This document shows positions 498-20,851 of a stretch of DNA of 33,606 nt, piece after piece. The notes beneath the pieces are model-generated. The model was not told where the DNA came from, searched no databases, and was given only the letters and a program-made list of their open reading frames with translations. The position numbers and the translations under genes were made by a program. The stretch is from Solirubrobacterales bacterium (GTDB taxonomy: Bacteria; Actinomycetota; Thermoleophilia; Solirubrobacterales; Solirubrobacteraceae), in contig JAFAYV010000010.1 in NCBI GenBank assembly GCA_019240115.1, forward strand, positions 1-33,606. Reading direction: 5' to 3'. The number at the start of each line of letters is the position of its first letter. The first letter of the stretch is position 1.

Positions 498-528
498 GCC
501 GGGAGTGTGGCCGACCTCGCCGACTCGT

Positions 529-534: not shown

Positions 535-540
535 CACGCG

Positions 541-1170: not shown

Positions 1171-1174
1171 GCGG

Positions 1175-3497: not shown

Positions 3498-4045
3498 GCG
3501 TCGACGGCGCCGGTGCCGCCGCCCTGCCGCGCGGCCAGCTCGGCGGCGGTCAGCGCCGTCAGCGGCGGATCGTCGCCCGGCCAGCGCGGCAGGATCCCGG
3601 GCACCGACTTGAGCAGGATCGCCTCGGGCGCCCCGATCGCGACCGCGGCGAGGACCGCAAGCGAGTCGCTGGTCACCGCCCAGGACTCGGGGACGTCCGG
3701 GCGGCCCCGGAACGCGGGCGCGGCCTCGAGCACCGCCGCCCCGACGGGCAGCGGGCATCCGCCGAGCCGGGTCACCCGCGCGCCGACGCCGAGCAGCTCG
3801 CAGAGCATCACCCCGAGCTGGTCCATCGCGCGCAGCGCGAGCTCGTGGGCGACCGCGTCGGAGAGGCCGATGCGGCGATCGAGCTCGCGCACCGCGTCGG
3901 CGAACGGGCCGCCGCCGGGGACGACGAGGACCCGGCGTCGCGCGGCGAGCACGCCGACCTCCGCACACGCGGCTCGCAACCCCGCAAGGCCCCGGTCGCG
4001 CAGCAGGCCGCCCCCGACCTTGACGACGAGCGGCGGCTCATTCAC
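3416..4045 (-). CDS. mfnE: Amino-acid-kinase-fold phosphotransferase, MfnE-like
   Basis: The 209-residue protein starts VVKVGGGLLRD and continues VLVVPGGGPFADAVRE, both typical of the amino acid kinase fold. SDSLAVLAAVAIGAPEAILLKSVPGIL follows in the nucleotide-binding half. In methanofuran synthesis MfnE phosphorylates [5-(aminomethyl)furan-3-yl]methyl phosphate to the diphosphate; small proteins of this family occur in methylotroph H4MPT clusters. The start is a GTG at 4045 that overlaps the end of mfnF by eight bases. Its 3' end overlaps the convergent mfnB by 82 bp. Assignment to MfnE rests on family plus the adjacent mfnF and nearby mfnB. Confidence 0.85.
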   Translation of the reverse strand: MNEPPLVVKVGGGLLRDRGLAGLRAACAEVGVLAARRRVLVVPGGGPFADAVRELDRRIGLSDAVAHELALRAMDQLGVMLCELLGVGARVTRLGGCPLPVGAAVLEAAPAFRGRPDVPESWAVTSDSLAVLAAVAIGAPEAILLKSVPGILPRWPGDDPPLTALTAAELAARQGGGTGAVDAYLPDAVRRTGVVVTVRSPESRGTRID

Positions 4046-5042
4046 CGCCGAGCACCGACAGGGCGACCGCGGCCGCGACGTCGCCGGCGGGGCCGCTGAG
4101 CGGGCCGGCGCCGCCCCGGGTCATCAGCCCGCAGCGGCCGGCGGCCGCCCGGGCGAGGAACGCCCCGACGCCCACGGCGACGACCTCGGGCGGGTCGGCG
4201 AAGCCGCCGGCGATCCTGCGCAGCGCGCGTGCGATCGCGTCGACCTGGGCCTCGAGCACCGCGTCGGCGATCGCCTCGAGGTCCCCGGGCGCGAGCTGCT
4301 CGGGGTCGGCGCAGACGACGCGCGCCAGGCGTGCGCGCACCTCGGCCGGCGTCGTGCCGCGGCCGTCGGGAAAGCCGCAGGGGCACTGCTCGGGGCGCAG
4401 CCGCCCGGCGAGCAGGTGCGCGTCGGCCGCGATCGCGAACAGCTCGGCGGACACCGGGCACGGCGCCCCGCCGATCGGTACGGCGTCGACGATGGCGGCG
4501 ACGTTCGTCCGCAGCGCGCCGGTGTAGACGAGCTCGCCGGCGAGCAGGCGCTCGACGTCGGTGCGCCCGGCGGCGCGGACCCGGCCCCCGGCGATCGGGA
4601 CGACGTCGGTCGTCGTGCTCCCGCAGTCAACGAGGATCGCGTCGGGAGCCGCGCGCGCGACGAGCAGCGCGGTGGCGATCCAGTTGGCCGCCGCGCAGCG
4701 CAGCGGGTCGGCTCGCGCCGCCGTCGGGCCGACGAGCTCGCCGTCGATGGTCAGAACCCGCAGGCGGCGCTCGGGCAGCGCGGCCTCGGCGGCGTCGAGC
4801 ACGTGCAGCACCCCCGCGCGCTTGGACGCGAACACGTCGACGAGCTCGGCGGTCGTCGTCAGCGCGACGGCGCCGTCGCCGCCCAGCGCCCCGACCGTCG
4901 CGGCGATCGCTCCCGGCAGGCCCGCGAGGTCGCGCCACAGCTCGAGCGGCTCGGTGAAGACGCGCGGCGGACCCTCGCCGTCGACGAGCGCCGCCTTCGT
5001 GTTGGCGCCGCCGATGTCGAGTCCGATCGCCGTGGCGGCCAT
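4038..5042 (-). CDS. mfnF: Hydantoinase/oxoprolinase-like MfnF, furan-tyramine coupling enzyme
   Basis: The 334-residue ASKHA/hydantoinase-like protein starts GLDIGGANTKAALVDGEG and has the second phosphate-binding-like motif DCGSTTTDVVPI around residues 139-150. The family also shows the RPEQCPCGFPDGRGT segment seen in H4MPT-cluster homologues. MfnF joins the aminomethylfuran diphosphate to the glutamylated tyramine (or tyrosine) moiety in methanofuran or methylofuran synthesis. Its ATG at 5042 is only nine bases from the divergent hisA-like ATG at 5052, so the promoters must overlap the opposing coding regions. It is followed by overlapping mfnE, its pathway predecessor. Confidence 0.9.
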   Translation of the reverse strand: MAATAIGLDIGGANTKAALVDGEGPPRVFTEPLELWRDLAGLPGAIAATVGALGGDGAVALTTTAELVDVFASKRAGVLHVLDAAEAALPERRLRVLTIDGELVGPTAARADPLRCAAANWIATALLVARAAPDAILVDCGSTTTDVVPIAGGRVRAAGRTDVERLLAGELVYTGALRTNVAAIVDAVPIGGAPCPVSAELFAIAADAHLLAGRLRPEQCPCGFPDGRGTTPAEVRARLARVVCADPEQLAPGDLEAIADAVLEAQVDAIARALRRIAGGFADPPEVVAVGVGAFLARAAAGRCGLMTRGGAGPLSGPAGDVAAAVALSVLGGE

Positions 5043-5051
5043 TGCAGCATC

Positions 5052-5744
5052 ATGGCGGTCGTGCGCGTCATCCCGGTCATCGATCTGCGGGGCGGGGTCG
5101 TCGTCCATGCCCGGCGCGGCGACCGCGACGCCTACGCGCCGCTGGACAGCCCGCTCGTCGACGGTGCCGATCCGGCCACCGTCGCCCGCGCGCTGACGCG
5201 GCGCTGTCGCACCGGCACCGTGTACGTCGCCGATCTCGACGCGCTCGCCGGCGCGCCGCCCGACGTCGCAACGCTGGCCGCCGTGGCGCGGGTGGCCGCT
5301 CCCTGGGTCGATGCCGGTGCCACCAGCGCGGAGCGGGCGACCGCCCTGAGCCGCGCCGGCGCCGCGCGCAACGTCGTCGGCACCGAATCGCTGCGCGCCG
5401 ACCTCCCGCCCGACGACCCGCCGCGCGCGCTGAGCGTCGACCTGCGCGACGGCCGCCTGATCTCTCCGCGCCCCGACCTCGACGGCCGCGAGCCCGTCGC
5501 GGCCGTCCCGCTCGCCGCCGAGCTGGGCGCCGCCGAGCTGCTCGTCATCGACCTCGCGCTCGTCGGCAGCGGCGCCGGACCTCCGGTCGCCGCGGTGGCT
5601 GCGCTCGCCGACGCACTGCCCGCCGCCGCCATCTACGCCGGCGGCGGCGTCCGCGACGACGCCGACCTCGCGGCTCTGCAACGGGCCGGCGCCGCCGGCG
5701 CGCTCGTCGCCACCGCGCTGCATGCGGGCCGTCTCAGCCTGTGA
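5052..5744 (+). CDS. HisA-like TIM-barrel protein of H4MPT clusters
   Basis: A 230-residue (beta/alpha)8 protein resembling phosphoribosyl-formimino isomerase HisA: RVIPVIDLRGGVVVHARRGDR at the N-terminus, VYVADLDALAG in strand 2-3, and IYAGGGVRDDADLAAL near the C-terminus. It lacks a histidine-gene context. It lies between methylofuran genes, diverging from mfnF by nine bases and overlapping the convergent RimK-like ligase by 11 bases. HisA-like proteins recur in archaeal and methylotroph H4MPT clusters and are thought to act in cofactor synthesis, but I know of no demonstrated reaction. A true histidine HisA cannot be excluded, although it is divergent from that family. Confidence 0.82.
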   Translation: MAVVRVIPVIDLRGGVVVHARRGDRDAYAPLDSPLVDGADPATVARALTRRCRTGTVYVADLDALAGAPPDVATLAAVARVAAPWVDAGATSAERATALSRAGAARNVVGTESLRADLPPDDPPRALSVDLRDGRLISPRPDLDGREPVAAVPLAAELGAAELLVIDLALVGSGAGPPVAAVAALADALPAAAIYAGGGVRDDADLAALQRAGAAGALVATALHAGRLSL

Positions 5745-6627
5745 CGAGCGCCTCACAGGCACCGACGACGCGCGCGGTCAGGTCGGCCTCGCAGACCGAC
5801 TGCAGTCCCTGCCATCCCGGGATCCCGTTGACCTCGAGCACGTGGATCGCGCCGTCGCGCCCCACGAGCAGGTCGACCCCGGCGACGTCCGCCTCGACCG
5901 CGCGTGCCGCGCGCAGCGCCAGCCGCTCCTCCTCGGCGCCCAGCGTCGCCGCGACCGGACGCCCGCCCCGGGCGACGTTCGCCCGCCATCCCGGCGCGAC
6001 CCGCTCCATCGCGCCGACGACCTCGCCGGCGACGACGAGCGCCCGCAGGTCGCGCGCGTCGGCGATCGTCGCCTGCAGGTAGAAGACGGCGCGTTCGAGC
6101 TCGAGCGCCCGGAACACGCGGAGCGCGACGTCGGCGTCCTCGATCCGCACCATCCCCGAGCCCATCGCCCCGAACAGCGGCTTGACGATCACGTCGCCGC
6201 CGAGCCGCGCGAACGCCTGCAGCGCGTCGGCGCTGCGCTCGCAGGCGATTGTCGCCGGCGTCGGCAGTCCCGCGGCGGCGAGCGTCGCCCCCGCCCACGA
6301 CTTGTCGACGGTCCGCTCGATCGCGCGCGGGCCGTTGACGCAGCGCACTCCGGCAGCGGCCAGCGCGTGCAGCGCGTCCATGCGGAAGATGACCTGCTCG
6401 AGCGAGCCACGCGGCAGCCCCCGAACGACGAGGAGGTCGAGCTCGTGCAGCGCGACGCCATCGGGGCCCGAGAGGGCCGCCGATCCGTCGGAGCCGATCT
6501 CGGAGACGAGCCGCGTCGCGGGAATCGTCGCCACGACATGACCGCGACGTTGAAAGGCGTCCTGTAGGCGGCGCGCATGCCAGAGACCCGAGGCGCCGAG
6601 CACCCCGACCCGCAGCCCGCCGCTCAC
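5734..6627 (-). CDS. RimK/MptN-like ATP-grasp ligase
   Basis: The 297-residue protein has an N-terminal Rossmann-like segment (VGVLGASGLWHARRL), the ATP-grasp lysine region DVIVKPLFGAMGSGMVRIED (about residues 145-164) and the metal-binding end LEVNGIPGWQGLQ. It resembles the RimK family, which adds amino acids, often glutamate, to a carboxylate through an acyl phosphate. Archaeal MptN and CofF are such ligases acting on H4MPT and F420. By context this enzyme probably adds glutamate to H4MPT or to methylofuran, whose bacterial form carries glutamate chains; which of these is not decidable here. The GTG start overlaps the mch stop (GTGA). It is the last gene of the eight-gene minus-strand operon and overlaps the HisA-like gene tail by 11 bp. 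Confidence 0.88.
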   Translation of the reverse strand: MSGGLRVGVLGASGLWHARRLQDAFQRRGHVVATIPATRLVSEIGSDGSAALSGPDGVALHELDLLVVRGLPRGSLEQVIFRMDALHALAAAGVRCVNGPRAIERTVDKSWAGATLAAAGLPTPATIACERSADALQAFARLGGDVIVKPLFGAMGSGMVRIEDADVALRVFRALELERAVFYLQATIADARDLRALVVAGEVVGAMERVAPGWRANVARGGRPVAATLGAEEERLALRAARAVEADVAGVDLLVGRDGAIHVLEVNGIPGWQGLQSVCEADLTARVVGACEALVTG

Positions 6628-7574
6628 TGCGTGAACGAGCGCTCCAGGACCTCCGGCGCGAGGCCGCCGCCATGATGGGCGCGCCCGGACTCGGTGCTCG
6701 TCAACGTCACCGCCGCGGGGCTGAACAGCATCGGGTCGATCTCGTAGAAGTCGCCGCCGGCCTCCTCGAGCAGCTCGCCGAACGGGGTCCCGAACGCGTC
6801 GGAGGCCGACGAGGGCAGCCGCGCCGCCAGCTCGGCGACCTCCTCGTCGTCGCCCTGCAGCCAGAGATGCGCGGTCCCCCCGTACAGCATCGCGTCGTTC
6901 GTGCGGCCGATCGCCGCGCCGTCGTCGGCGGCGATCGGGGCCAGCGGGCAGCAGCCCCAGCCGCTGCGCACCCGGGCGGGGTCGACCTCGAGCTCGTGCA
7001 GCTTGTGCAGCGCGGTCTCGACGACCCGGGCCGCGATCTGCACCGAGCCGCACGCCGAGGCGGTCGGCGCGATCAGGAACGTCAGTTTCGAGGCCGGCAG
7101 CTCGCACGCGGACGCCACCTTCTCGACGATCTCCGCCGGCGGGTCCTGTCCGGTCTCCAGGCACAGCACCGCGCGATCGGCCTCCTCGCGCCAGGCGAGC
7201 TCCTCGAACAGGTCCTCGACACACGCCAGGCAGCGCCCCGGCCCTGACGCCAGCGCGAAGAAGTCGTCGGTGGCGAGCTTCCAGCCCGCGTACTGGGAGG
7301 CGAGGCAGGCGGTCGCGGGGTCATCGACGGCGACGCCGACCCCGGGCCACGTCCGATCGCCGACGGTCACCCCGATCGGGTCGACCCGCCCGAGGCCGCC
7401 CATGCAGGCGGCGGCGAACCCGAGCCCGGCGGCGGTCCCGCCCGGGACCTGGGCGCCGCAATCGACGACGCGCGCGCCGCCCTCGAGCTCGCGGACGGCG
7501 ATCCGCAGCGCGTCGGCGTCGGCCACCATCGCGTCGACCAGCGCGGCGGCGCGTTCGTTCATGGACAGGCTCAT
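6624..7574 (-). CDS. mch: Methenyl-H4MPT cyclohydrolase
   Basis: The 316-residue protein matches Mch, which hydrolyses methenyl-H4MPT to 5-formyl-H4MPT between MtdB and the Fhc complex. Recognisable stretches are GGTAAGLGFAAACMGGLGRV, ASQYAGWKL, LTFLIAPTASACGSVQIAAR and the C-terminal YEIDPMLFSPAAV. The length equals that of the family. The ATG at 7574 overlaps the fhcC stop (ATGA). A second in-frame ATG four codons later is possible, but the overlap pattern of the whole operon favours 7574. Stop and next start overlap as GTGA. Confidence 0.97.
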   Translation of the reverse strand: MSLSMNERAAALVDAMVADADALRIAVRELEGGARVVDCGAQVPGGTAAGLGFAAACMGGLGRVDPIGVTVGDRTWPGVGVAVDDPATACLASQYAGWKLATDDFFALASGPGRCLACVEDLFEELAWREEADRAVLCLETGQDPPAEIVEKVASACELPASKLTFLIAPTASACGSVQIAARVVETALHKLHELEVDPARVRSGWGCCPLAPIAADDGAAIGRTNDAMLYGGTAHLWLQGDDEEVAELAARLPSSASDAFGTPFGELLEEAGGDFYEIDPMLFSPAAVTLTSTESGRAHHGGGLAPEVLERSFTQ

Positions 7575-8398
7575 CCGGCTGCCACCTCCTCCTCGTCGAA
7601 GATCAGGATCTCTCCCCGGCTCAGCTCGAGCCGGTCGCCCGCCCAGCGCGTCCACGCGCCGGTCAGCATCGCGTCGGGCACCTCGAGCCCGAGCTCGCGC
7701 AGACGGCGCAGCTGGAGCGCGAGCGCCGGCGGGCGATAGCGCACCGCCCGCGCATAGCCGGGCAGCGGCCGCAGCGGGCGCCCCGAGACGATGCTCCCGC
7801 GCTTGTTGCCCATGCCCGCCTCCGCGCCCACGCCGCGCAAAGCGATCACCGTGCCGGCGAGCATCCGCAGGCCGGCGCCGTCGCCGGCGCGGCCGCCGAT
7901 CGCCACCAGCCCACGTCGCATCGCGGCCCCCGCCTCCTGCCCCGCATCGCCGGCGATCACGATCTCCCCGCCGCTCATCCCCGCGCGCGTGCCCGGGTAC
8001 CCGGCCCCCGCCGACGCGCCCGCCGACCCCTCGATGCGGACCAGGCCGCCGCGCAGCTCGGCGCCCGCGAACGCGCCGGCATCGCCGTCGATCACGATCT
8101 CGCCGCCGGTCATCCGCGCGCCGACGTGGTCGCCGCACGACCCCTCGACGCGCAGGCGGCCGCCGCGCATGCCGGCGCCGATGCGGTCGATGCGCCCCAG
8201 CTCGCCGCGCAGCACGAGCTCGTCGGTGCCATACCCGCTGACGGCGAATAGCTCGCCGACGCCGACCCGGTCGCGCCCGCAGCGGATCGCCGTTCCGGCG
8301 ACCTCGATCGCGCTGCGCCCCCGCGTCGTCTCGGGCACGAGCGGCGAGAGATCGACGCGCGCCGGGGGCGAGGTCAGGGCCGTCAGGGTCAGTGTCAC
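7571..8398 (-). CDS. fhcC: Formyltransferase/hydrolase complex subunit C
   Basis: The 275-residue protein is built from repeated short beta-helix turns of the GxxGxxxxGG type (for example IGAGMRGGRLRVEG, VGARMTGGEIVIDGDAG, AGAAMRRGLVAIGGRAG) between residues 75 and 210. This is characteristic of FhcC and archaeal FwdC. With FhcA, B and D it forms the complex that moves the formyl group from H4MPT to methylofuran and hydrolyses it to formate. The GTG start overlaps the fhcD stop (GTGA), and the stop overlaps mch (ATGA). The order fhcB-A-D-C is kept here. Confidence 0.95.
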   Translation of the reverse strand: MTLTLTALTSPPARVDLSPLVPETTRGRSAIEVAGTAIRCGRDRVGVGELFAVSGYGTDELVLRGELGRIDRIGAGMRGGRLRVEGSCGDHVGARMTGGEIVIDGDAGAFAGAELRGGLVRIEGSAGASAGAGYPGTRAGMSGGEIVIAGDAGQEAGAAMRRGLVAIGGRAGDGAGLRMLAGTVIALRGVGAEAGMGNKRGSIVSGRPLRPLPGYARAVRYRPPALALQLRRLRELGLEVPDAMLTGAWTRWAGDRLELSRGEILIFDEEEVAAG

Positions 8399-9306
8399 GG
8401 CGGGTCTCGCAGCTCGGACAGGGGGAAGTGGAAGGGGCCGAGGTCGCCGCCGAAGTTCGCGGCGGTGACCTGGAGCGCGCCGGCGTCCGCGGCCGCGTGC
8501 AGCCCGCGGCGCATGCACTCGCGCACCGCGGCCTCGGATACGCCGTCGATGACGATCTCGAACACCGCCCCGACGCCGTCGGGCACAAAGCTGTCGTCGA
8601 CCTGCGCGCGCAACGTGGGGGCCATGCGATGGTTCGTCGTGGCCGGGATCGATGACGAGCGCAGCGAGCCGACCTTGCTGCCGCTGCGCACGATCCCGCC
8701 CGGGAACGGCAGCGCGATGCCGGGACCGCGCATCGCGTCGGCGGCGGCCTGCGCGGCGACGAGCGCATGCGCGTCGTCGGCGCCGAGGAAGACGAGGTTG
8801 CCGCCCGCCACCCCGGTGTCGACGCCGACCGACTCACAGCACAGGAACTCGCCCTCCATCACCGGGATGCGCCAGAAGCGCTCGCCGGCCACGACCTTGC
8901 TCGCCTGGAACCCGTCGCCGAAGTAGCGCAGTGCCGAGCCGACCGCGACGCGCTTCTCGCCGTCGGGGAGTCCGTCAAAGCAGGCGCTCGTCGGGCACGT
9001 CATGACGCTCTGGCCGACGCGCTCAAGGATCCGCTCGCCGACGCCCTCGGAATCCATCGCGAACAGGAGCACCGCGATCCCGGGGCGCCCGTCGGGGGTC
9101 TCGCCGGCGTCGAGCGGGCGCTCGATCGCCGCCTCGCACTTGCAGCCGATCACCGAGGTCGCAAAGCCGGTCATCGAGCGCGCCGCCTCGAGCGCCCAGG
9201 CATCGGTGGCGGCGGTGATCACGACCCGGGCGTAGCGCATCGGGAACGCCTCGGCGAACTCGTCGGTGACCTCGGTGTCGCCGAGCCGATAGGCGCCGTC
9301 GCTCAT
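8395..9306 (-). CDS. fhcD: Formylmethanofuran:H4MPT formyltransferase, complex subunit D
   Basis: The 303-residue protein matches Ftr/FhcD, which transfers the formyl group between formyl-H4MPT and methylofuran. The N-terminus reads EVTDEFAEAFPMRYARVVITA, with family motifs EAAIERPL, MTCPTSACFDGLP, FWRIPVMEGEF and ALPFPGGIVRSGSKVGS, and the ending ANFGGDLGPFHFPL. Length and motif order are normal for the family. Its ATG overlaps the fhcA stop (ATGA) and its stop overlaps the fhcC GTG. Confidence 0.97.
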   Translation of the reverse strand: MSDGAYRLGDTEVTDEFAEAFPMRYARVVITAATDAWALEAARSMTGFATSVIGCKCEAAIERPLDAGETPDGRPGIAVLLFAMDSEGVGERILERVGQSVMTCPTSACFDGLPDGEKRVAVGSALRYFGDGFQASKVVAGERFWRIPVMEGEFLCCESVGVDTGVAGGNLVFLGADDAHALVAAQAAADAMRGPGIALPFPGGIVRSGSKVGSLRSSSIPATTNHRMAPTLRAQVDDSFVPDGVGAVFEIVIDGVSEAAVRECMRRGLHAAADAGALQVTAANFGGDLGPFHFPLSELRDPP

Positions 9307-10937
9307 GACGCCTCCACGGTGCGGGCGGGCTCGCGCAGCGCCGGATCGCGCACCGGATAGTGATCGAAGGCGACCGTGTAGCGCTCGCCGAACAGCGGCT
9401 CGAGCACCTCGGCGACCGCGGGATCGAACGGCGCGCGCCCGCTGAGCAGCAGGCCGTCCTGCACCCGGCGCAGGTCGCCGTCCTCGACGAGGAGCTCGCC
9501 GCCCTGGATGACGTAGCGCGGCGTCGAGAACATCTCCTCGCGGTCCTCGCGGTCGTGGTAGATCGTCACGTCGGCGTCGGCCCCGACGCCGAGATGGCCC
9601 TTGTCGCGCAGGCCCAGGCGTCGCGCCGGCGCGGCCCGGGTGATGATCGCGATCTCGTTCAGCGTGTACTCGCGGTCGAGGTCGTCGAGCAGGGCGGTGC
9701 GGCGGATCGCCCGGCGATTGGCCCGGCCGAGCTGATCCTCGCGGTAGCCCCGGTCCATCAGCAGGCGGATGAGCTTCGGATAGGAGAGAAACGAGCCGCC
9801 GTTCGGGTGGTCGGTGGAGAGCATCACCTGCCAGGGGTCGCCTCCGAGCAGGAACAGCTCGAGCCCGATCCCCCACTGCAGCGCGTGGACGTAGTTGCCC
9901 GCCTGATAGGTGTAGGGGACGATCCCGCAGCCGGTCTCGACCTCGGTGTCGTGGTTGAGCCACTTGCCGCCGTCGAGGTCGCGCAGCACGGTCGACACGT
10001 GGGCGTCGGCGGTCGTCGTCACCGCGTCGCCGAACATGACCTGGCCGACGTCGACGGTGAACTCGGGGTGAGCGGCGAGATGCTCGAGCAGCTCGGGCGC
10101 TCGCGAGCGCATCGGACCGCCCGGTTCTCCGCCGTAGCTGTGGAACTGCAGGTGGGCGAAGTGCGCCTGGCGCCCGTCGAGGGTGCGCATCGTGTCGAGC
10201 GTCGTGGCGGCGTTGCCGGCGACCCCGAGGTTGTTGGCGTGCACGTGGACCGGGTGAGGGAGGCCGAGCCCGTCCACCGCCGAGCCGATCGCCTCGATCA
10301 CCTGGCGGGGGGTGACCGCGAAGCCGGCGATCGTGTCGTCGAGCGACTCGATCACCCCGTTGCTCTGCTTGAACAGCTCCACCCCGCCGGGATTGACGAG
10401 CTTGACGCCGTAGCCGCCGGTCGCCTGCAGCCACCACGCGATCGCGTCGCGCAGGTGCGCCGAGCCGTCGCGGATGAGCTCGAACAGCACCTGGTTGTTG
10501 CCCATGAGGATGAGGAAGGCCTTGTCGATCATCGGCGTGTCGCGCAGCTCGGCGAGCACATGACGCGCGGCCAGTGGCGGCGCCGCCGCCTCGACCACCG
10601 TCGTGTAGCCGAGCAGCGAGTAGCGGTAGCCGGTGGCGAACGTCGAGGGCACGAGCCCGCCGGTGCCCGAGCGCAGCAGCTCGGTCCGGTCGATCGGGTC
10701 GTCGCGGCGATCGTCGGACAGCAGGCGCCGCGCCGCGGTGACCTTGGGTCCCGCGATGTGGGCGTGGATGTCGACCCCGCCGGGCATGACCACCATCCCG
10801 CGCGCGTCGATCGTGCGCGCCTGCGCCCCGACATCGTCGACGATCCGGCCGTCGCGCAGGCAGAGGTCGCGGACCTCGCCGTCGACCTCGTTGGCCGGGT
10901 CGTGGATCGCACCGCCGGTGATCCGGATCTCGGTCAT
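9303..10937 (-). CDS. fhcA: Formyltransferase/hydrolase complex subunit A (amidohydrolase)
   Basis: The 544-residue protein is an amidohydrolase-fold FhcA/FwdA that hydrolyses formyl-methylofuran to formate. The metal motif HAHIAG gives His58 and His60. GGYGVKLVNPGG gives Lys179, the position of the carboxylated lysine in FwdA. HVHANNLG supplies His231 and His233, and LSTDHPNGGSF gives Asp376. All the expected catalytic ligands therefore appear intact. The C-terminus has the usual amidohydrolase beta-sandwich segment GADADVTIYHDREDREEMF. Both ends overlap neighbours by four bases (fhcB upstream, fhcD downstream). Confidence 0.97.
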   Translation of the reverse strand: MTEIRITGGAIHDPANEVDGEVRDLCLRDGRIVDDVGAQARTIDARGMVVMPGGVDIHAHIAGPKVTAARRLLSDDRRDDPIDRTELLRSGTGGLVPSTFATGYRYSLLGYTTVVEAAAPPLAARHVLAELRDTPMIDKAFLILMGNNQVLFELIRDGSAHLRDAIAWWLQATGGYGVKLVNPGGVELFKQSNGVIESLDDTIAGFAVTPRQVIEAIGSAVDGLGLPHPVHVHANNLGVAGNAATTLDTMRTLDGRQAHFAHLQFHSYGGEPGGPMRSRAPELLEHLAAHPEFTVDVGQVMFGDAVTTTADAHVSTVLRDLDGGKWLNHDTEVETGCGIVPYTYQAGNYVHALQWGIGLELFLLGGDPWQVMLSTDHPNGGSFLSYPKLIRLLMDRGYREDQLGRANRRAIRRTALLDDLDREYTLNEIAIITRAAPARRLGLRDKGHLGVGADADVTIYHDREDREEMFSTPRYVIQGGELLVEDGDLRRVQDGLLLSGRAPFDPAVAEVLEPLFGERYTVAFDHYPVRDPALREPARTVEAS

Positions 10938-12046
10938 CGCGCCAGCCCCTCGCCGATCCGCGCCAGCAGCTGCGCGGCCGTCGGGCGATCGGCGGGCCAC
11001 GGAGCCGCCAGCGCGAGCGGCACCTCGTCGAGGCGATGCGCCGTGCCGGGAGCCGCTACCCCCGGGGGCGCCGTCGCGATGTGCACCGCGGCGTCGGCGA
11101 CCGGGAGCGCGCTGAGCGCGATCGTCGTCACCCCGGGGCGGGCGGGCGCCTCGACGCACACCGCGACGTCGACCCCCTCGTCGACCGCGAGCGCGAGCTC
11201 GGGATGGCCGCTGGCGAGGTCGACGGCGGCGGGGTACCCGGTCTGCCAGGTCAGGACCGCGTCGGCGCCGGCGCTGCCGGCGACCGGCGGGAGGCCGAGC
11301 GTCACCACGTGGCGCTGATCGCTGAGCGCGCGCACGAGCTCGTACAGCGCGAGCGCCGCCCGCGGGCCGCCGAGACCGGGGCCGTGCACGAAGGCGGCGT
11401 GGGGAACCGCGTGGAGCCGGTCAAGCAGCCCCCGCAACTCGCCGGCGAGATCGTCCTCGGTCAGCGGCAGCTCGCGCTCGAGCACGTGCAGGCTTCTGAT
11501 CGCTTCGAGGTCGCGCCCTGCCGCCCAGCGCAGGCGCACGTCGGCGCGCGCGGCGGTGGCGGTGTCGCGGTCGTCGACGACGACGAGCGTCGCGCCCGAG
11601 CCGAGACGTTCGAGCAGCCGCGGGTGCGTGACCTCGGGATCCTCGCGCCACACCACGACGACCTCCGCGCGGTCGCGGATCTCGCCCAGGGTGGCGGTCG
11701 AGCTGCCCCGTCGGGCGACCGCCTCGGGGTCGGGCGCGCGATCGACGCGGACGAGCGCGCCGAGACGATCGGCGAGCGTCACCGCGGCGCGCGCGTCCTC
11801 GACGGTCGCGCCGTCGAAGCCGTGCAGCAGCGGCCGGCGCGCCGCGCCCAGGAGCTCCACCGCGCGGTCCAGCGCCGCGGTCACGTCGGCGGGCGCACCG
11901 TCGATGCTCGCCGCCGCGCCGCCGGCGTCGCGCCGCGCCGCCAGCCAGCGCGAGCCCAGCGCGCACTCCGGCGTCAGCGCGGTGCCCTCCGCGGTCACGT
12001 CGTCGCACAGCAGCCCGCAGCCGGCGCAGATCAGCGGCTCGCTCAC
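10934..12046 (-). CDS. fhcB: Formyltransferase/hydrolase complex subunit B
   Basis: The 370-residue protein resembles the molybdopterin-enzyme-like FwdB/FmdB family. It keeps an N-terminal cysteine cluster, LICAGCGLLCDDV, with Cys7, Cys10 and Cys14 plus Cys28 in TPECALGS. It continues with ARRPLLHGFDGATVEDARAA and VVVWREDPEVTHPRLLER. Bacterial FhcB has a structural, non-redox role in a complex that works without the formate-dehydrogenase chemistry of methanogens. The protein is shorter than archaeal FwdB, consistent with that. Retention of four cysteines in iron-sulfur-like spacing is worth noting. The GTG at 12046 overlaps the preceding ligase stop (GTGA) and starts just before the conserved cysteines. 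Confidence 0.92.
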   Translation of the reverse strand: MSEPLICAGCGLLCDDVTAEGTALTPECALGSRWLAARRDAGGAAASIDGAPADVTAALDRAVELLGAARRPLLHGFDGATVEDARAAVTLADRLGALVRVDRAPDPEAVARRGSSTATLGEIRDRAEVVVVWREDPEVTHPRLLERLGSGATLVVVDDRDTATAARADVRLRWAAGRDLEAIRSLHVLERELPLTEDDLAGELRGLLDRLHAVPHAAFVHGPGLGGPRAALALYELVRALSDQRHVVTLGLPPVAGSAGADAVLTWQTGYPAAVDLASGHPELALAVDEGVDVAVCVEAPARPGVTTIALSALPVADAAVHIATAPPGVAAPGTAHRLDEVPLALAAPWPADRPTAAQLLARIGEGLAR

Positions 12047-13107
12047 CGAGCCAGCACCGTCCCCGGCAATGCTCTTAAGAGCCCGGTCCCGACCGCGCGC
12101 AGCTCGTTCACCGCGTGCTCGCCCGACACGAGCGTGCAGACCGGCTGGCCGCGCGCGATCGACTCCCCGGCGCGGGGGATGTCGCGCGCGAGCCCCGAGG
12201 GCCACCAGTCCGGGTGGGGCGCGCGCAGGTCGCGGTCGGCGAACAGCACAAGCTTCACCCTACCCGCGGGCGGCGCCGGAACCACGGGCGGTCGCCGGCC
12301 ACGCGCTCCCTCGACGTGTGCGGCGAACGCGCCGGGTCCGACGAGCTCGAGCGCCGCCGTCGGCCGGGGGTTGACCTCGAGCACCCATGTCTGGCGCCCG
12401 TCCCAGATCGCGTCGACGCCGAAGGCGCCCCGCACCCCGAACCGCGCGGCGACCTCGTCGCACACCGCGCCCAGCCGGCCCGCGAGCTCGGCGCGCTCCC
12501 CGGCGGGCAGCCGCGGCGGCGTCACGTTGCCCGTCCAGCGAAAGCCGCGCGGCGCCAGCAGCTGCTCGGTGACCGCGAGCGTGCTCGCGGTCCGGGCGTC
12601 GGCGAGCGCCACCGCCGAGCACGGCACGCCCGCGACGAACCGCTGCAGGATCTCCGTCGATCGCGGTCGGCCGCCCGCCCAGCGTCGGATCCCGCGCCCG
12701 CCGCCGCCCCGCAGCGGCTTGCGCAGCCACGCGCCGTCTTGCACCGCGGGCTCGCGCCTGCGGGTCTCGGGAGCGCGCGCCCCCGCGGCCCGGGCCGCCG
12801 CCGCCACCGCCCACGGGTCGCGAACCGCCGCGAGCCGATCGGCCGGCGTGCCGAGCAGCTCGCGCCCGTCGGCGAGCCGCGCCACCAGGTCGGGACGGTT
12901 CTCGAGACCGGCCCCGTAGACGACCGCGTCGGCGGCGACCCCGTCGGCGAGCGCGACGAGCGCGTCGTTGCTCGCCGCGGTGCCACCGGGGGCGATCCGA
13001 CGCAGGTCGACGTCGCCGAAGCGATCGAGCGCGATCACGCGGTGGCCGTCGGCGACGGCGAGCTGCGCGAGCATGCGCGCGCTGACCGCCACGACGAGCA
13101 CGGTCAC
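12043..13107 (-). CDS. ATP-grasp ligase, MfnD-like (tyramine/tyrosine-glutamate ligase candidate)
   Basis: A 354-residue ATP-grasp protein: N-terminal VTVLVVAVSARMLAQLAV, a glycine-rich KPLRGGGGRGIRRW lid, and the metal-binding motif WVLEVNPRPTAALELVG. In archaea MfnD glutamylates tyramine during methanofuran synthesis, and ATP-grasp proteins of this kind sit beside fhc genes in methylotrophs. The neighbourhood contains mfnB, mfnE and mfnF, so a glutamate ligase acting on the tyrosine or tyramine moiety of methylofuran is the most economical role. No decarboxylase for tyrosine is visible here, and bacterial methylofuran is reported to carry tyrosine. The GTG start overlaps the CitG-like stop (GTGA). 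Confidence 0.82.
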   Translation of the reverse strand: MTVLVVAVSARMLAQLAVADGHRVIALDRFGDVDLRRIAPGGTAASNDALVALADGVAADAVVYGAGLENRPDLVARLADGRELLGTPADRLAAVRDPWAVAAAARAAGARAPETRRREPAVQDGAWLRKPLRGGGGRGIRRWAGGRPRSTEILQRFVAGVPCSAVALADARTASTLAVTEQLLAPRGFRWTGNVTPPRLPAGERAELAGRLGAVCDEVAARFGVRGAFGVDAIWDGRQTWVLEVNPRPTAALELVGPGAFAAHVEGARGRRPPVVPAPPAGRVKLVLFADRDLRAPHPDWWPSGLARDIPRAGESIARGQPVCTLVSGEHAVNELRAVGTGLLRALPGTVLAR

Positions 13108-13979
13108 GGCAGCGCCACCCCGGTCAGCAGCGCCGCGAGCAGCGTGGCGGCGACGAGATCGGCGGTCGTGCCGGGATTGCGGCGGTTGCCCTCGGCGCGC
13201 AGCCACGCGTCGAGGCTCTCGGCCGTCCGCTCGCCGCGGAGCACCTCGCCGGCGGCGTCCGCGACCTCGCGCGCGGCCGCGCGGCCCGCCTTGCGCGCGA
13301 TCAGCGTGTCCGGCCGGCTGGCCAGCAGCCACAGGTGCAGGTCGGCGATCGCCTCGAGCGTGGGCCGGCCCGCGCGCAGCGCCGCGGTCAGCGCGGGCAG
13401 CCCGGCGTCGAAGACGATCGCATAGCCGGTCGCGTACTCCGAGGCGATGTCGTCGCGGTCGGCGGCCGCGGCCATCGCGGTCCGCAGATCGACGCGCACC
13501 GGCGCGCGAACGTCGTGCTCGGGCGCGTCACCCAGCCCGCCGGGCGCGGCCCGGGCGATGGCGGCGAAGGCGGCGGCGGCATCGGCGACGGTCAAATCGG
13601 CGAGCGCCCGCTCCACCGCGTCGCGCAGCGTCTCCGCGCCATCCCGGCTCGCCGCCGCGCGCGCCAGCGGGGCGAACAGGAGCACGATCCCGAGGTTCGT
13701 GTTCGCCGCCGCGACCGCGGCCGTGGCCTGCACCGCCTGCTCGATCAGGGCGCCGATCCCGAGCCGGTCGGCCCGCGCCAGGACGGGGCCGATGGCGAGC
13801 CCCGAGCGGACCATGTCGGCGAACGTCGTGTCGGCGAAGCCGTGTGACGGGGTGATGTTGCCGGGCTTGGGCGCGGAGACCTCGAGCACGCAGGCCAGCG
13901 ACACCGCCGCTACCAGCCGGTCGTCGCCCGGGCGAGCGGGCTCTGGTTCGGCTAGGGTTGAGCCCACTTCGGCCACCAT
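13104..13979 (-). CDS. CitG/MdcB-like protein (triphosphoribosyl-dephospho-CoA synthase family), H4MPT-cluster type
   Basis: A 291-residue helical protein with the family hallmarks EVSAPKPGNITPSHGF (about residues 33-48), AANTNLGIVLLFAPLA and EYATGYAIVFDAGLPAL, ending RNPGTTADLVAATLLAALL. The family transfers a triphosphoribosyl group from ATP in citrate-lyase prosthetic group synthesis. No citrate or malonate decarboxylase genes are nearby, but members of this family recur in methylotroph and planctomycete H4MPT clusters. A nucleotide-dependent phosphoribosyl-type step in H4MPT assembly is a plausible inference, but unproven. It is the first gene of the eight-gene operon and diverges from fae by 21 bp. 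The first ~20 residues are non-conserved, so the real start could be slightly further in. Confidence 0.85.
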   Translation of the reverse strand: MVAEVGSTLAEPEPARPGDDRLVAAVSLACVLEVSAPKPGNITPSHGFADTTFADMVRSGLAIGPVLARADRLGIGALIEQAVQATAAVAAANTNLGIVLLFAPLARAAASRDGAETLRDAVERALADLTVADAAAAFAAIARAAPGGLGDAPEHDVRAPVRVDLRTAMAAAADRDDIASEYATGYAIVFDAGLPALTAALRAGRPTLEAIADLHLWLLASRPDTLIARKAGRAAAREVADAAGEVLRGERTAESLDAWLRAEGNRRNPGTTADLVAATLLAALLTGVALP

Positions 13980-14000: not shown

Positions 14001-14513
14001 ATGGCCATCACCCTGTCAACCGGAGAGTCGCTCGTCGGCGACGGCAACGAGGTAGCGCACATCGACCTCTTGATCGGCTCCAAGAGCGGCCCCGTCGGCG
14101 CGGCGTTCGCCAGCGCGTTCACCACCGAGTCCGACGGCCACACGAACCTGATGGCGGTCGTCACGCCGAACCTGCCGGCCAAGCCCGACACCGTGATCAC
14201 GAACAAGGTCACGATCAAGGGCGAGAAGCAGGCCGTCCAGCTGTTCGGCCCCGCCCAGGCGGCCGTCGCCCGCGCCGTCGTGGACTCGGTCAGCGAGGGC
14301 ATCATCCCCAAGGACCAGGCCGACGAGCTGTGCATGATCGTCGGCGTCTTCATCCACTGGGACGCCTCCGACGACAAAGCGATCTACGACAACAACTACA
14401 CGGCCGTCAAGGAGTCGATCTCGCGCGCGCTGAAGGGCGAGCCGAGCATGGACAAGGTCCTCTCCGACACGCCGGAGGCCCGCCACCCGTTCGCGGGCGG
14501 CGCCGAGGGGTAG
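14001..14513 (+). CDS. fae: Formaldehyde-activating enzyme
   Basis: The 170-residue protein catalyses condensation of formaldehyde with H4MPT to methylene-H4MPT, the entry step of the pathway. The N-terminal signature GNEVAHIDLLIGSKSGPVG contains His20, equivalent to the catalytic His17 of the Methylorubrum enzyme. PNLPAKPDTVITNKVTIKG and the ending DTPEARHPF are also typical. Length matches stand-alone Fae with no fused hexulose-phosphate synthase domain. A strong Shine-Dalgarno sequence is consistent with the high Fae levels known in methylotrophs. It is the first gene of a four-gene run with the SDR, DHPS-like and mtdB. Confidence 0.98.
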   Translation: MAITLSTGESLVGDGNEVAHIDLLIGSKSGPVGAAFASAFTTESDGHTNLMAVVTPNLPAKPDTVITNKVTIKGEKQAVQLFGPAQAAVARAVVDSVSEGIIPKDQADELCMIVGVFIHWDASDDKAIYDNNYTAVKESISRALKGEPSMDKVLSDTPEARHPFAGGAEG

Positions 14514-14518: not shown

Positions 14519-15280
14519 GTGGCGGCGCAGGCCGGGGGGCTCCCGCTCGCCGGTCTGCGCACCGTCGTGACGGGCGCCTCGAGCGGCATCGGCCGCGCGA
14601 TCGCGTCCGCGTTCGCGGGTGCCGGGGCCCGCGTCGGGATCGGCTATCACCGCTCCGGCGAGGCCGCGACGCAGCTCGCCGCAGAGCTCGGCGGAGACCA
14701 TCCCCCGCTGCAGGCCGACCTCGGCACCGCGGCGGGCTGCGAGGGGGTCGTCGAGGCGGCGTTCGCCGCGCTCGGCGGCCTCGACGTCTGGGTCAACAAC
14801 GCCGGCGCCGACATCCTCACCGGCGAGGCGGGAGGCTGGCCGCCCGAGCGCAAGCTCGACGCGCTGCTCGACGTCGATCTGAAGGCGACGATCCGCTGCT
14901 CGCGGCTGGTCGCGCCGCGAATGCCCGAGGGCGGCTGCATCCTGAACATGAGCTGGGATCACGCGGCCATCGACGGGATGGCGGGGCCCAACCCGGAGCT
15001 GCACGCGGCGGTCAAGGCCGCGATCCTCGGCTTCTCCAAGTCCTTCGCGCGTTCGGTCGCGCCCCGGGTGCGGGTCAACGTGCTCTGCCCGGGCTGGATC
15101 GAGACCGCGTTCGGAGAGGGCGCGGAGGACGAGTTCCATGCCCAGGTCGCCTCCGAGATCCCGCTGGGACGCTGGGGACGACCGCAGGATGTCGCCGGCG
15201 CGGCGGTATGGCTCGCCTCCCCGGCGGCCGCCTACGTCACCGGGCAGGCGGTCAACGTCAACGGGGGAGCGGTTGGCTGA
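14519..15280 (+). CDS. Short-chain dehydrogenase/reductase with His in place of catalytic Tyr
   Basis: The 253-residue classical-size SDR has the nucleotide motif TGASSGIG (residues 18-25), NNAG (93-96) and a Ser at 145 in ILNMSWDH. At the YxxxK position the sequence reads ELHAAVKAA, giving His162 and Lys166, so the usual proton-donating tyrosine is absent. After strand 2 it carries GYHRSGEAA, resembling the NADPH-binding YHRS segment of pteridine reductase PTR1. It lies between fae and the DHPS-like gene. GTG at 14519 is chosen because GAGGGG stands about nine bases upstream. Within an H4MPT cluster lacking an obvious dmrA, a dihydropterin reductase role is a reasonable hypothesis; an unrelated dehydrogenase is possible. 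Confidence 0.85.
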   Translation: MAAQAGGLPLAGLRTVVTGASSGIGRAIASAFAGAGARVGIGYHRSGEAATQLAAELGGDHPPLQADLGTAAGCEGVVEAAFAALGGLDVWVNNAGADILTGEAGGWPPERKLDALLDVDLKATIRCSRLVAPRMPEGGCILNMSWDHAAIDGMAGPNPELHAAVKAAILGFSKSFARSVAPRVRVNVLCPGWIETAFGEGAEDEFHAQVASEIPLGRWGRPQDVAGAAVWLASPAAAYVTGQAVNVNGGAVG

Positions 15281-16616
15281 CACCCTGTTCGTGACCGGCC
15301 GGCTCGCCGAGCCGGCGCTGCGCGACATGCTCGCCGAGCTGGAGATCGATCACCAGGTCGCGGTGATGAACATCAGTGTCGCCGCCCTGATGACGACGCG
15401 CTGGATCGCGAAACGGCTGGCGGCGCCCGAGGGCATCGACAACATCGTCATCCCGGGACTGTGCGAGGGCGACGTCGACGTTCTGCAGCAGGCGACCGGG
15501 CTGCCGGTGCGCAAGGGCCCGGCCGACGTGCGCGCCCTGCCCGAGTGGTACGGGCGTGAGGCGATCGCCGCCGAGCTCGGTCCCCGCGACGTCAAGGTGT
15601 TCGCCGAGATCAACCAGGTCCCGGCGCTGACCCGCGAGCAGGTCATCGAGCAGGCCGAGGCCTATCGGGCCAGCGGCGCCGACGTCATCGACCTCGGGCT
15701 GTCGCTCGACCGCTCGTGGCTGCAGGAGGGGCCGGCGACGATCGCCGCGCTGCGCGAGCGGGGGCTGTCGCTGTCAATCGACACGCTCGATCCCGAGCAC
15801 ATCCGGATGGCCGACGCGGCAGGCGTCGACTACGTGCTCAGCCTCACCCCGGAGACGATCGAGCTCGCCGAGGAGCTGCGCGCCATCCCGGTGCTGATCA
15901 CCGAGGATCCCGACGACCTCGAGGGGCTGGGCCGGCTCGCCGCGCACATGGAGCGCCTCGGGCGCCCGTACCTGCTCGACTCGATCCTCGCCCCGATCAA
16001 CTCGGGCTTCGCCGCCTCGCTGGCTCGCTACGTCGAGGTCCGCCGCCGCCATCCCGACTCCGAGATCCTCATGGGGATCGGCAACCTCACCGAGCTGACC
16101 GAGGCCGACTGCACGGGGGTGACCGCGCTGCTGATCGGGTTCTGCCAGGAGGTCGGGGTGGGGGCGGTGTTGACCACCGAGGTCGTCGGCTGGGCCCGCG
16201 GCGCGGTGCGCGAGACGGTGCTCGCCGCCGAGGTGATGCACCTCGCCCAGCGCCAGGCCCGCCCGCCCAAGCACATCGATCCTGGCCTGGTCACCAGCCG
16301 CGACGAGACGATGCGCGCGCCGACGGAGGAGGAGCTGCGCGAGATGCAGGCCCAGGTCTCCGACCCCAACTGGCGCCTGTTCGCCGACGCCGACTGGCTG
16401 TACGCGTTCAACGGCGAGCAGTTCGTGCGCGAGACGAACATGTACCGCGTGTTCGACCAACTCGGCGTCGAAGATCCATCGCACGCCTTCTATCTGGGTA
16501 AGGAGCTGATGAAGGCGACGATCGCGCGCGGACTGCGCAAGAGCTATCGCCAGGAGGGGCCCCTCGACTGGGGGCTGCTGAGCTTTCCCGAACCGCGACG
16601 AGAGGACCCCGAGTGA
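15273..16616 (+). CDS. Dihydropteroate synthase-like protein of the H4MPT pathway
   Basis: A 447-residue protein with an N-terminal ~100-residue domain starting LFVTGRLAEPALRDMLAEL (the DUF6513-like region) and a TIM-barrel DHPS-like core from about 108. The core has FAEINQVPALTREQV, GADVIDLGLSLD (136-146) and LSLSIDTLDPEH (166-177). In H4MPT synthesis such proteins are thought to couple the pterin diphosphate to RFAP in place of pABA, the step that separates H4MPT from folate. The start is taken as TTG at 15273, overlapping the SDR stop, because the family begins within a few residues of LFVTGRLAE. GTG at 15291 would cut into that motif. The end overlaps the mtdB GTG. Confidence 0.88.
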   Translation: MADTLFVTGRLAEPALRDMLAELEIDHQVAVMNISVAALMTTRWIAKRLAAPEGIDNIVIPGLCEGDVDVLQQATGLPVRKGPADVRALPEWYGREAIAAELGPRDVKVFAEINQVPALTREQVIEQAEAYRASGADVIDLGLSLDRSWLQEGPATIAALRERGLSLSIDTLDPEHIRMADAAGVDYVLSLTPETIELAEELRAIPVLITEDPDDLEGLGRLAAHMERLGRPYLLDSILAPINSGFAASLARYVEVRRRHPDSEILMGIGNLTELTEADCTGVTALLIGFCQEVGVGAVLTTEVVGWARGAVRETVLAAEVMHLAQRQARPPKHIDPGLVTSRDETMRAPTEEELREMQAQVSDPNWRLFADADWLYAFNGEQFVRETNMYRVFDQLGVEDPSHAFYLGKELMKATIARGLRKSYRQEGPLDWGLLSFPEPRREDPE

Positions 16617-17473
16617 AGAAGATCCTGATCCAGCTCGACACCGACGAGCATCCCAGCGCGTTCGACGCGATCGCCGCCTACGACGCCGACGTCGACATCG
16701 TGCTCGGCTACGGCGGGGTGACCACCGATGGGCTCGACGACCTCGTCCAGGGCGCGATGTTCCCGCGCGGTCCCGAGGGGCTGGCCAACACCGCGTTCTG
16801 GGTCGGCGGGTCCAAGGTGCGCGACGGCGAGGCGGTGTTCGAGGCCGCGCGCAAGCTGTTCTTCGATCCCTTCTCGGCTTCGATCATGCTCGACTCCGAC
16901 GGCTCGAACACGACCGCCGCGGCGGGGCTGGCGATGGTGCGCGAGGCGGTCACGCTGAAGGGCGCGAAGGCCGCGGTCATCGGTGTCGGGCCGGTCGGCC
17001 TGCGCACCGCCGAGCTGTTGCGCCGCGAGGACGCCGAGGTGACGGTGCTGACCTTCCCGCCCGACGTCGTCGAGGGCGAGTTCCGCCGGGCGTCGGGCAT
17101 CCCGGTCGCGCAGGAGGCCGGCTTCACCGTCACCGAGCCCGAGTCCAGCGACGAGCTCGACGGCCTGCTGGCGGGCCACGTCGCCGTCCTCGCCGCCGGA
17201 CCGGCGGGGATACAGGTCCTACGGCGTAGCGGCTGGGCCGGAGTCGAGGGCGTGCAGGTCGTCGTCGACTATTCGGCGGCCGAGCCGGTCGGGGTCGAGG
17301 GCGTCGAGCGCGACGACGAGCTCGAGGAGGAGGACGGGGTCGCCAAGCTGGGCGCGCTGGCGGTCGGCGGACCGAAGATGGAGCTGCAGAAGCGCTGCGT
17401 GCAGCGGATGTTCGAGGAGAAGGGGACGGTGCTCGACCTCCAGGGCGTCTACGACGTCGCCCTGGAGCAGTGA
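16613..17473 (+). CDS. mtdB: NAD(P)-dependent methylene-H4MPT dehydrogenase
   Basis: The 286-residue protein matches MtdB: N-terminal KKILIQLDTDEHPSAFDAI, substrate-region FWVGGSKVRDGEAVFEAARK, and a Rossmann motif AAVIGVGPVGLRTAELLR around residue 120. It oxidises methylene-H4MPT to methenyl-H4MPT with NAD or NADP. That is the bacterial solution, unlike the F420-dependent Mtd of archaea, even though this genome has F420-type enzymes nearby. The GTG overlaps the upstream stop (GTGA), and AGAGGA at 16601-16606 gives a good ribosome site. It ends three bases before the convergent pterin dehydratase. Confidence 0.95.
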   Translation: MKKILIQLDTDEHPSAFDAIAAYDADVDIVLGYGGVTTDGLDDLVQGAMFPRGPEGLANTAFWVGGSKVRDGEAVFEAARKLFFDPFSASIMLDSDGSNTTAAAGLAMVREAVTLKGAKAAVIGVGPVGLRTAELLRREDAEVTVLTFPPDVVEGEFRRASGIPVAQEAGFTVTEPESSDELDGLLAGHVAVLAAGPAGIQVLRRSGWAGVEGVQVVVDYSAAEPVGVEGVERDDELEEEDGVAKLGALAVGGPKMELQKRCVQRMFEEKGTVLDLQGVYDVALEQ

Positions 17474-17476: not shown

Positions 17477-17833
17477 CTATTTGGAGAAGACGAACTTGCT
17501 CATCGGGCCGTCGAGCGGGCCGTCGGCCTCGGGCTGCCACAGGATCGTCTCCTCGATCTTGCGCGCCAGGGTGAAGTCCTTGTCGGTGATCCCGCCGGCG
17601 GAGTGGGTGGCCAGCTTGACCCACAGCTTGCCCCAGGTGACCTCGAGATCGGCGTGATGGCCGGCGGCCTCGCACAGGTAGCCGACCGCGTTGACCGCCA
17701 TCATCGTCATCGGCCACCCACCGGTGCTGTACTTGCGCCGAATCCAGTTGCCCTCGTGGTACCAATCGCCGATTCCGTACTCGTCGAGCTTGGCCGGGAT
17801 CTCGTCGTCTGCGTAGGTTCGTTCGTCGCTCAT
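17477..17833 (-). CDS. Pterin-4a-carbinolamine dehydratase-like protein
   Basis: A 118-residue PCD/DCoH-family protein. The characteristic segment AGHHADLEVTWGKLWVKL (57-74) followed by ATHSAGGITDKDFTLARKIE carries His59, His60 and His77. Aromatic hydroxylase partners are not visible nearby. PCD-like genes occur in methylotroph H4MPT clusters and have been proposed to act in cofactor synthesis or pterin recycling. The extra N-terminal ~25 residues are longer than minimal PCDs. Its ATG is 11 bases from the divergent DUF1464 start, with a TANNNT -10 exactly six bases ahead. Confidence 0.88.
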   Translation of the reverse strand: MSDERTYADDEIPAKLDEYGIGDWYHEGNWIRRKYSTGGWPMTMMAVNAVGYLCEAAGHHADLEVTWGKLWVKLATHSAGGITDKDFTLARKIEETILWQPEADGPLDGPMSKFVFSK

Positions 17834-20803: not shown

Positions 20804-20851
20804 CTCGCCGTGGGGGGCGAATGGGGATGCATCCCGACCGTGGAGGTGGTG

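What the first reader, a model, noticed from the sequence alone, without database searches (positions are those of the whole stretch)
14519..15280. SDR with HxxxK instead of YxxxK: candidate missing dihydromethanopterin reductase
The catalytic Tyr position is His162 (ELHAAVKAA), while Ser145 and Lys166 remain, and a PTR1-like YHRS segment follows strand 2. It is co-located with fae, the DHPS-like gene and mtdB, and no DmrA homologue is recognisable in the window. It may reduce dihydromethanopterin, a step not otherwise covered here.
Basis: partly seen in the sequence, partly recalled or inferred. Interest (0 to 1): 0.68.

Follow-up and report, generated by a model that had tools for sequence, protein, structure and literature searches.

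The report
Candidate new dihydromethanopterin reductase family
A short-chain dehydrogenase gene next to the formaldehyde-oxidation genes belongs to a previously undescribed enzyme family that occurs in five bacterial phyla, almost only in organisms using the cofactor tetrahydromethanopterin, has swapped the usual catalytic residues, and never co-occurs in our sample with the known enzyme DmrB, so it is probably a third, unrecognised enzyme for the last step of making that cofactor.

Summary
The ORF is a real SDR in a fae–SDR–DHPS-like–mtdB operon. The residue reading is half right. Position 162 is the Tyr position, but His is peculiar to this species: 31 of 33 relatives have Phe. Ser145 is not the catalytic Ser; that position is Trp146. 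Across the family only Lys166 of Asn-Ser-Tyr-Lys survives; W91, D98, D120, W146, D147 and W193 are invariant (33/33).

The protein belongs to one clade (SH-aLRT 99) found in Actinomycetota, Acidobacteriota, Gemmatimonadota, Planctomycetota and Gammaproteobacteria. All 9 of 28 genus genomes with cluster-type Fae have it directly after fae. Among 369 Gammaproteobacteria, 16/16 carriers have Fae. Among the 48 Fae-positive ones, DmrB occurs in 13 and never together with the SDR (4.3 expected). Outside Gammaproteobacteria the SDR mostly sits just before the DHPS-like gene, the slot DmrB fills in DmrB carriers. The window's genome has no DmrA, DHFR or DmrB.

It is not a PTR1/FolM member. Main rival: another reductive step of the same pathway. 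Caveats: 18 Fae+ genomes with the DHPS-like gene have neither enzyme; statistics ignore phylogeny.

The parts
14519..15280 (+). SDR-fold oxidoreductase, proposed dihydromethanopterin reductase (WD-SDR family); GTG start, 253 aa
   Evidence: AlphaFold2 model pLDDT 92, pTM 0.91; nearest folds are FabG-type SDRs, Z 34
14954..14959 (+). Trp146-Asp147 codons (TGG GAT): the SDR catalytic-Ser position plus the next residue, invariant WD in 33/33 members
15002..15004 (+). His162 codon (CAC) at the SDR catalytic-Tyr position; Phe in 31/33 members, Leu in one
15014..15016 (+). Lys166 codon (AAG), the only retained member of the Asn-Ser-Tyr-Lys tetrad
14810..14827 (+). Residues 98-103 (DILTGE): invariant Asp98 after NNAGA, in the family motif GAD[ILV]LTG
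14001..14513 (+). fae, formaldehyde-activating enzyme, 5 bp upstream of the SDR
   Evidence: PF08714 8.1e-69; TIGR03126 7.2e-72
15273..16616 (+). orfY/DHPS-like H4MPT-biosynthesis gene (DUF6513, TIGR00284); TTG start overlaps the SDR by 8 nt
16613..17473 (+). mtdB-type methylene-H4MPT dehydrogenase, overlaps orfY by 4 nt
   Evidence: PF09176 3.7e-25
17477..17833 (-). pterin-4a-carbinolamine dehydratase homologue (PCD); lies between SDR and orfY in Gemmatimonadota, Acidobacteriota and Acidimicrobiia
   Evidence: PF01329 4.7e-22
283..13979 (.). Rest of the H4MPT/methanofuran cluster: folE, DUF447, beta-RFAP synthase, mfnB, mfnE-like, hydantoinase-like, MptN/RimK-like, mch, fhcC/D/A/B, ATP-grasp, citG-like orf5

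Best explanation
The gene encodes an NADPH-dependent dihydromethanopterin reductase of the SDR fold, not homologous to DmrA (DHFR fold) or DmrB/AfpA/DmrX (FMN flavoproteins). It makes the last reduction of tetrahydromethanopterin: (dephospho-)H2MPT + NADPH + H+ -> H4MPT. Shown: classical SDR fold and sequence; loss of catalytic Asn, Ser and Tyr; retention of Lys; invariant W91, D98, D120, W146, D147 and W193; linkage to Fae/H4MPT genomes; no overlap with DmrB; position in the DmrB slot; absence of DmrA, DHFR and DmrB from the window's genome. Inferred: Lys166 and the Rossmann motif bind NADPH (RS/RT/RN-type loop after strand 2 instead of an acidic residue); the pterin lies between the nicotinamide and the Trp/Phe-rich pocket; an Asp carboxylate (D147 or D98) holds the pterin and helps protonate N5 through water, as the single Asp/Glu does in DHFR, while hydride goes to C6. 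Reducing a C=N bond needs no Tyr acid on a carbonyl oxygen, which would explain why the Tyr is Phe (here His) across the family.
For: (1) Genus: 9/28 genomes carry the SDR and the same 9 carry cluster-type Fae (E 1e-66 or better), always adjacent. (2) Cross-phylum: 25 of 26 family genomes have Fae; 0 of 6 genomes whose matching SDR lies outside the core family do. (3) Even draw of 369 Gammaproteobacteria-class genomes: SDR family in 16, all among the 48 Fae+ genomes (hypergeometric P about 6e-16). (4) DmrB in 13 of those 48, overlap with SDR 0 (expected 4.3, P 0.0018); no DmrB in 35 family genomes while two positive controls gave 1e-22. (5) Slot: DmrB lies directly 5' of the DHPS-like gene in Azoarcus, Paraburkholderia and Azospirillum oryzae (DmrB identity by PDB 3wis, 3e-103) and in 12 of 13 DmrB+ gamma genomes; the SDR lies there, with or without PCD between, in Solirubrobacterales, Gemmatimonadota, Acidobacteriota, Acidimicrobiia and three Planctomycetota. 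(6) No DHFR_1, DmrA-like or DmrB in G000. (7) One clade, SH-aLRT 99. (8) The literature says Afp is not recognised in Planctomycetes and some Proteobacteria, and names only DmrA in Methylobacterium as a substitute (PMC5020050).
Against: No activity is known. 19 of 48 Fae+ gammaproteobacterial genomes, 18 of them with the DHPS-like gene, have neither SDR nor DmrB, so at least one more solution exists or detection is incomplete; no conserved gene fills the slot there. In Gammaproteobacteria the SDR lies outside the H4MPT cluster, often beside a family-2 glycosyltransferase. Co-occurrence and exclusion statistics are not corrected for phylogeny. No sequence affinity to PTR1/FolM beyond general SDR. 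Residue 162 varies (F, H, L), so no catalytic role for it can be claimed. L055 (Thermosporothrix, no Fae) falls just inside the clade with GYD instead of WD.
Confidence: 0.6

Rival explanations
1. The SDR catalyses another reductive step of H4MPT synthesis, for example in turning the ribofuranosyl ring of the DHPS-like product into the 1-deoxyribitol chain, a step for which I know of no assigned enzyme.
For: Same genomic linkage to the DHPS-like gene and Fae; SDRs usually act on sugar or carbonyl substrates; some adjacency to PCD and DHPS-like genes.
Against: Every H4MPT maker needs that step, so it does not predict absence from DmrB carriers (0 of 13) or occupation of the DmrB slot; the Tyr acid used for carbonyl reduction is missing.
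Confidence: 0.2
2. A catalytically inactive SDR that acts as scaffold or regulator of the DHPS-like enzyme or of Fae.
For: Asn, Ser and Tyr of the SDR tetrad are all replaced; translational overlap with the DHPS-like gene.
Against: The Gly motif, NNAG, Lys166 and several pocket residues are invariant or nearly so across five phyla, which indicates kept NADPH binding and a defined pocket; the gene is unlinked from the DHPS-like gene in Gammaproteobacteria.
Confidence: 0.1
3. A methylene-H4MPT or formaldehyde/C1 dehydrogenase working beside or instead of MtdB.
For: Adjacent to fae; mtdB was not detected within the fetched Gemmatimonadota stretches.
Against: The window and every Solirubrobacterales contig long enough to show it carry an mtdB as well; fits neither the no-overlap with DmrB nor the slot.
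Confidence: 0.05
4. A dihydrofolate or dihydropterin (PTR1/FolM-type) reductase filling the lack of DHFR in this genus.
For: No DHFR_1 in 14 genomes of the order searched; NADPH-type strand-2 loop; FolM also lacks the catalytic Ser (Asp instead).
Against: Genus members without Fae lack DHFR too and have no SDR of this family; gammaproteobacterial carriers mostly have an ordinary FolA; not grouped with FolM.
Confidence: 0.05

Closest known systems
DmrB/AfpA and archaeal DmrX (FMN dihydromethanopterin reductases; PDB 3WIS/4MWG; TIGR02700)
   Same: Proposed reaction; gene position directly 5' of the DHPS-like gene; occurrence in Fae/H4MPT genomes
   Different: Unrelated fold and cofactor (FMN flavoprotein against SDR with NAD(P)H); no shared genome in our samples
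DmrA (DHFR-fold dihydromethanopterin reductase of Methylobacterium and other Alphaproteobacteria)
   Same: Proposed reaction and NADPH as donor (PMC6193120)
   Different: DHFR fold, no homology; no DmrA-grade match in family genomes
Pteridine reductase PTR1 / FolM (SDR pterin reductases)
   Same: SDR fold; proposed reduction of a 7,8-dihydropterin; catalytic Ser replaced
   Different: FolM has Asp at the Ser position and keeps Tyr; here Trp at that position followed by Asp, and Phe/His for Tyr; 25% identity to FolM, far apart in the tree
FabG / classical SDRs (3-oxoacyl-ACP reductase)
   Same: Closest by sequence (roughly 30-37% identity) and fold, Z 32-34
   Different: Asn, Ser and Tyr of the catalytic tetrad replaced; family-specific GAD[ILV]LTG and WD motifs; longer loop before residue 162

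Membership tests
Classical SDR superfamily (adh_short_C2) | Rossmann fold with TGxxxGIG and NNAG motifs | tested here: met
   PF13561 4.7e-51; motifs in alignment; model pLDDT 92 with SDR matches at Z 34
Classical SDR superfamily (adh_short_C2) | Catalytic Asn-Ser-Tyr-Lys tetrad | tested here: not met
   D120, W146, F/H162, K166 in the family; N or D, S, Y (one C), K in 14 controls
PTR1/FolM pteridine reductases | Asp at the Ser position with Tyr and Lys kept | tested here: not met
   FolM: Asp at that column, Tyr present; the family: Trp at that column, Asp one later, Phe/His
PTR1/FolM pteridine reductases | Closer to FolM/PTR1 than to other SDRs | tested here: not met
   FolM on a long separate branch, 25% identity; PTR1 itself was not available as a full sequence
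DmrA (DHFR-type) | DHFR fold/PF00186 | tested here: not met
   Only SDR models match in Pfam; SDR fold
DmrB/AfpA/DmrX | Flavoprotein domain of TIGR02700/TIGR02699 | tested here: not met
   No flavoprotein domain in Pfam, only SDR models among the 25 best of NCBIfam; SDR fold
Dihydromethanopterin reductase (by activity) | NAD(P)H-dependent reduction of H2MPT | not testable with these tools
   Needs purified enzyme and substrate
WD-SDR family proposed here | Single clade with W-D at the Ser position, Phe mostly at Tyr, GAD[ILV]LTG, in Fae/H4MPT genomes | tested here: met

The most novel reading that the evidence does not exclude
A third, independently evolved class of dihydromethanopterin reductase, built on the SDR fold with the Ser/Tyr catalysis discarded, that replaces DmrB and DmrA in Planctomycetota, Gemmatimonadota, Acidobacteriota, Actinomycetota and several uncultured gammaproteobacterial lineages, including a USC-gamma genome.
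Probability: 0.6. Interest if true: 0.78.

Novelty: new variant of a known kind. Interest (0 to 1): 0.7.

Why it matters
H4MPT-linked formaldehyde oxidation is widespread, but the last biosynthetic step had no recognised enzyme in several phyla: a 2016 opinion article states that Afp is not recognisable in Planctomycetes and some Proteobacteria and names only DmrA in Methylobacterium as a replacement (PMC5020050). This family fills the gap in many of them, gives a one-gene marker for H4MPT synthesis in MAGs that now looks like an anonymous 'SDR' or 'FabG' in annotation, and offers a case of an SDR losing Ser and Tyr while probably keeping reductase function on a C=N substrate. It can be tested directly in the existing M. 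extorquens dmrA system.

Tried and rejected
PTR1-like YHRS as a pterin-reductase signature: not conserved in orthologues. dmrA/DHFR elsewhere in the genome: not found. DmrB elsewhere: the single flavoprotein-domain hit in G000 lies in a 459-aa frame, typical of CoaBC, and TIGR02700 gives no flavin-domain hit of DmrB grade there. A conserved substitute in the DHPS-like slot of the 'neither' genomes: none. Order-mate G060 looked like an exception (Fae, no SDR), but it lacks the DHPS-like gene as well, so it is uninformative. Fold search shows only general SDR/FabG similarity. Search for WD-SDR on plasmids: none at 1e-40. Literature searches for an SDR in methanopterin synthesis found no description.

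Full report
Observation. The ORF at 14519-15280 is a complete 253-aa SDR. It starts 5 bp after fae and its stop overlaps the TTG start of the DHPS-like (DUF6513/TIGR00284) gene by 8 nt; that gene in turn overlaps mtdB by 4 nt. The rest of the window from 283 to about 19000 is a nearly full H4MPT/methanofuran cluster: folE, DUF447, beta-RFAP synthase, mfnB, mfnE-like, MptN-like, mch, fhcABCD, orf5. The window lies in contig C75 of a 4.0-Mb assembly, 95.6% complete. Orthologues at 73-77% identity are Solirubrobacterales MAGs.

Active site. In alignment with generic SDRs, column 146 is the catalytic Ser: it is Ser in all 14 controls, Trp in the window and in all 16 gammaproteobacterial members. 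Over 33 members from five phyla W91, D98, D120, W146, D147, K166 and W193 are invariant; residue 162 (the Tyr position) is Phe in 31, Leu in one and His only in the window protein. FolM has Asp at column 146 and keeps Tyr, so the family is not of PTR1/FolM type. The AlphaFold2 model (pLDDT 92, pTM 0.91) is an ordinary SDR fold, closest to FabG-like enzymes.

Family. A genome-contig scan with the nine orthologues returned a discrete set at 41-76% identity from Solirubrobacterales, Acidobacteriota, Acidimicrobiia, Gemmatimonadota, Planctomycetota and Gammaproteobacteria, followed by other SDRs at about 40% and below. In a tree with generic SDRs and FolM all WD members form one group with SH-aLRT 99 (quick tree; L028 and L054 were mislabelled 'generic' by my pattern and are WD members by alignment). 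Two divergent rows belong to it: L059, a Bacillota MAG with WD and Tyr inside an H4MPT cluster without fae, and L055, Thermosporothrix, with GYD and no Fae.

Linkage to H4MPT. In the genus, 9 of 28 genomes carry the SDR and exactly these 9 carry the cluster-type Fae, adjacent to it; some others have only a distant Fae paralogue. Of 26 non-genus family genomes 25 have Fae; of six genomes whose matching SDR lies outside the core family none has. In an even draw of 369 genomes from the Gammaproteobacteria class, 48 have Fae and 16 the SDR (14 full at 1e-100 or better, two cut by contig ends; all with W146, F162 and K166); all 16 are among the 48 (P about 6e-16, uncorrected for phylogeny).

Exclusion and slot. 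DmrB (TIGR02700 flavin domain) occurs in 13 of the 48 Fae+ genomes and in none of the 16 SDR carriers (4.3 expected, P 0.0018). None of 35 family genomes from all phyla has it, although two control plasmids gave 1e-22. In Azoarcus, Paraburkholderia and Azospirillum oryzae and in 12 of 13 DmrB+ gamma genomes (coordinates) DmrB stands directly before the DHPS-like gene. In Solirubrobacterales and three Planctomycetota the SDR stands there; in Gemmatimonadota, Acidobacteriota and Acidimicrobiia SDR-PCD-DHPS-like is the order. In Gammaproteobacteria the SDR is elsewhere, often next to a glycosyltransferase.

DmrA. DfrB of M. extorquens was located on the AM1 megaplasmid and used to find DmrA-like proteins (Phyllobacterium 'diacylglycerol kinase', Methylobacterium bullatum; such DAGK annotations are known DmrA misnomers, PMC6193120). 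PF00186 recognises the DmrA-like proteins only weakly, so an alignment of them was searched in addition: no match in the window's genome or genus; in other family genomes only weak matches of ordinary-FolA strength (1e-6 to 1e-10, against 1e-71 for the DmrA-like control itself). The window's genus shows no DHFR_1 at all.

Interpretation. The simplest account is non-homologous replacement: the SDR does the job of DmrB. A dihydropterin C=N reduction does not need the Tyr acid that SDRs use on carbonyls; a carboxylate near N5/N3 suffices in DHFR (established enzymology, from my own knowledge). The invariant D98 and nearly invariant D147 are candidates. This step is inferred. The rival of another reductive step in the same pathway keeps about 0.2, because linkage alone would fit it too; only the no-overlap with DmrB and the slot separate them, and both rest on comparative data.

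Limits. Eighteen Fae+ genomes that have the DHPS-like gene have neither enzyme, with no conserved gene in the slot. MAG incompleteness affects all absences. Search thresholds may miss divergent members. Phylogenetic non-independence was not corrected. The tree is the quick one. Literature was searched only in open-access papers.

Noticed in passing
genomes G000, G003, G004, G007, G009-G011, G013-G016, G018, G023 (genus of the window): No DHFR_1 (PF00186) in any of 13 genus genomes tested, with or without Fae; how they reduce dihydrofolate is open.
   Followed up: partly
L059 10001-10699 (Bacillota MAG): Divergent WD-type SDR with Tyr kept, directly before a DHPS-like gene in a full H4MPT cluster without fae; possible early branch of the family.
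   Followed up: partly
L055 10001-10750 (Thermosporothrix hazakensis): SDR inside the clade with GYD in place of WD, in a genome without Fae; substrate unknown.
   Followed up: no
L170-L187 (Gammaproteobacteria with Fae and DHPS-like gene): Eighteen genomes have neither DmrB nor the SDR nor an evident DmrA; a further dihydromethanopterin reductase may be hidden there.
   Followed up: partly
L028, L034, L039, L040 about 9070-9915 (-): In gammaproteobacterial carriers a family-2 glycosyltransferase is divergently transcribed from the SDR.
   Followed up: no
window 17477-17833 (-): Pterin-4a-carbinolamine dehydratase homologue; in other phyla it lies between the SDR and the DHPS-like gene, so it may act in the same step or protect the pterin.
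   Followed up: partly
window 20774-21919 (+): ORF that reads like an IS630-type transposase (by eye, not searched), just beyond the end of the H4MPT cluster.
   Followed up: no
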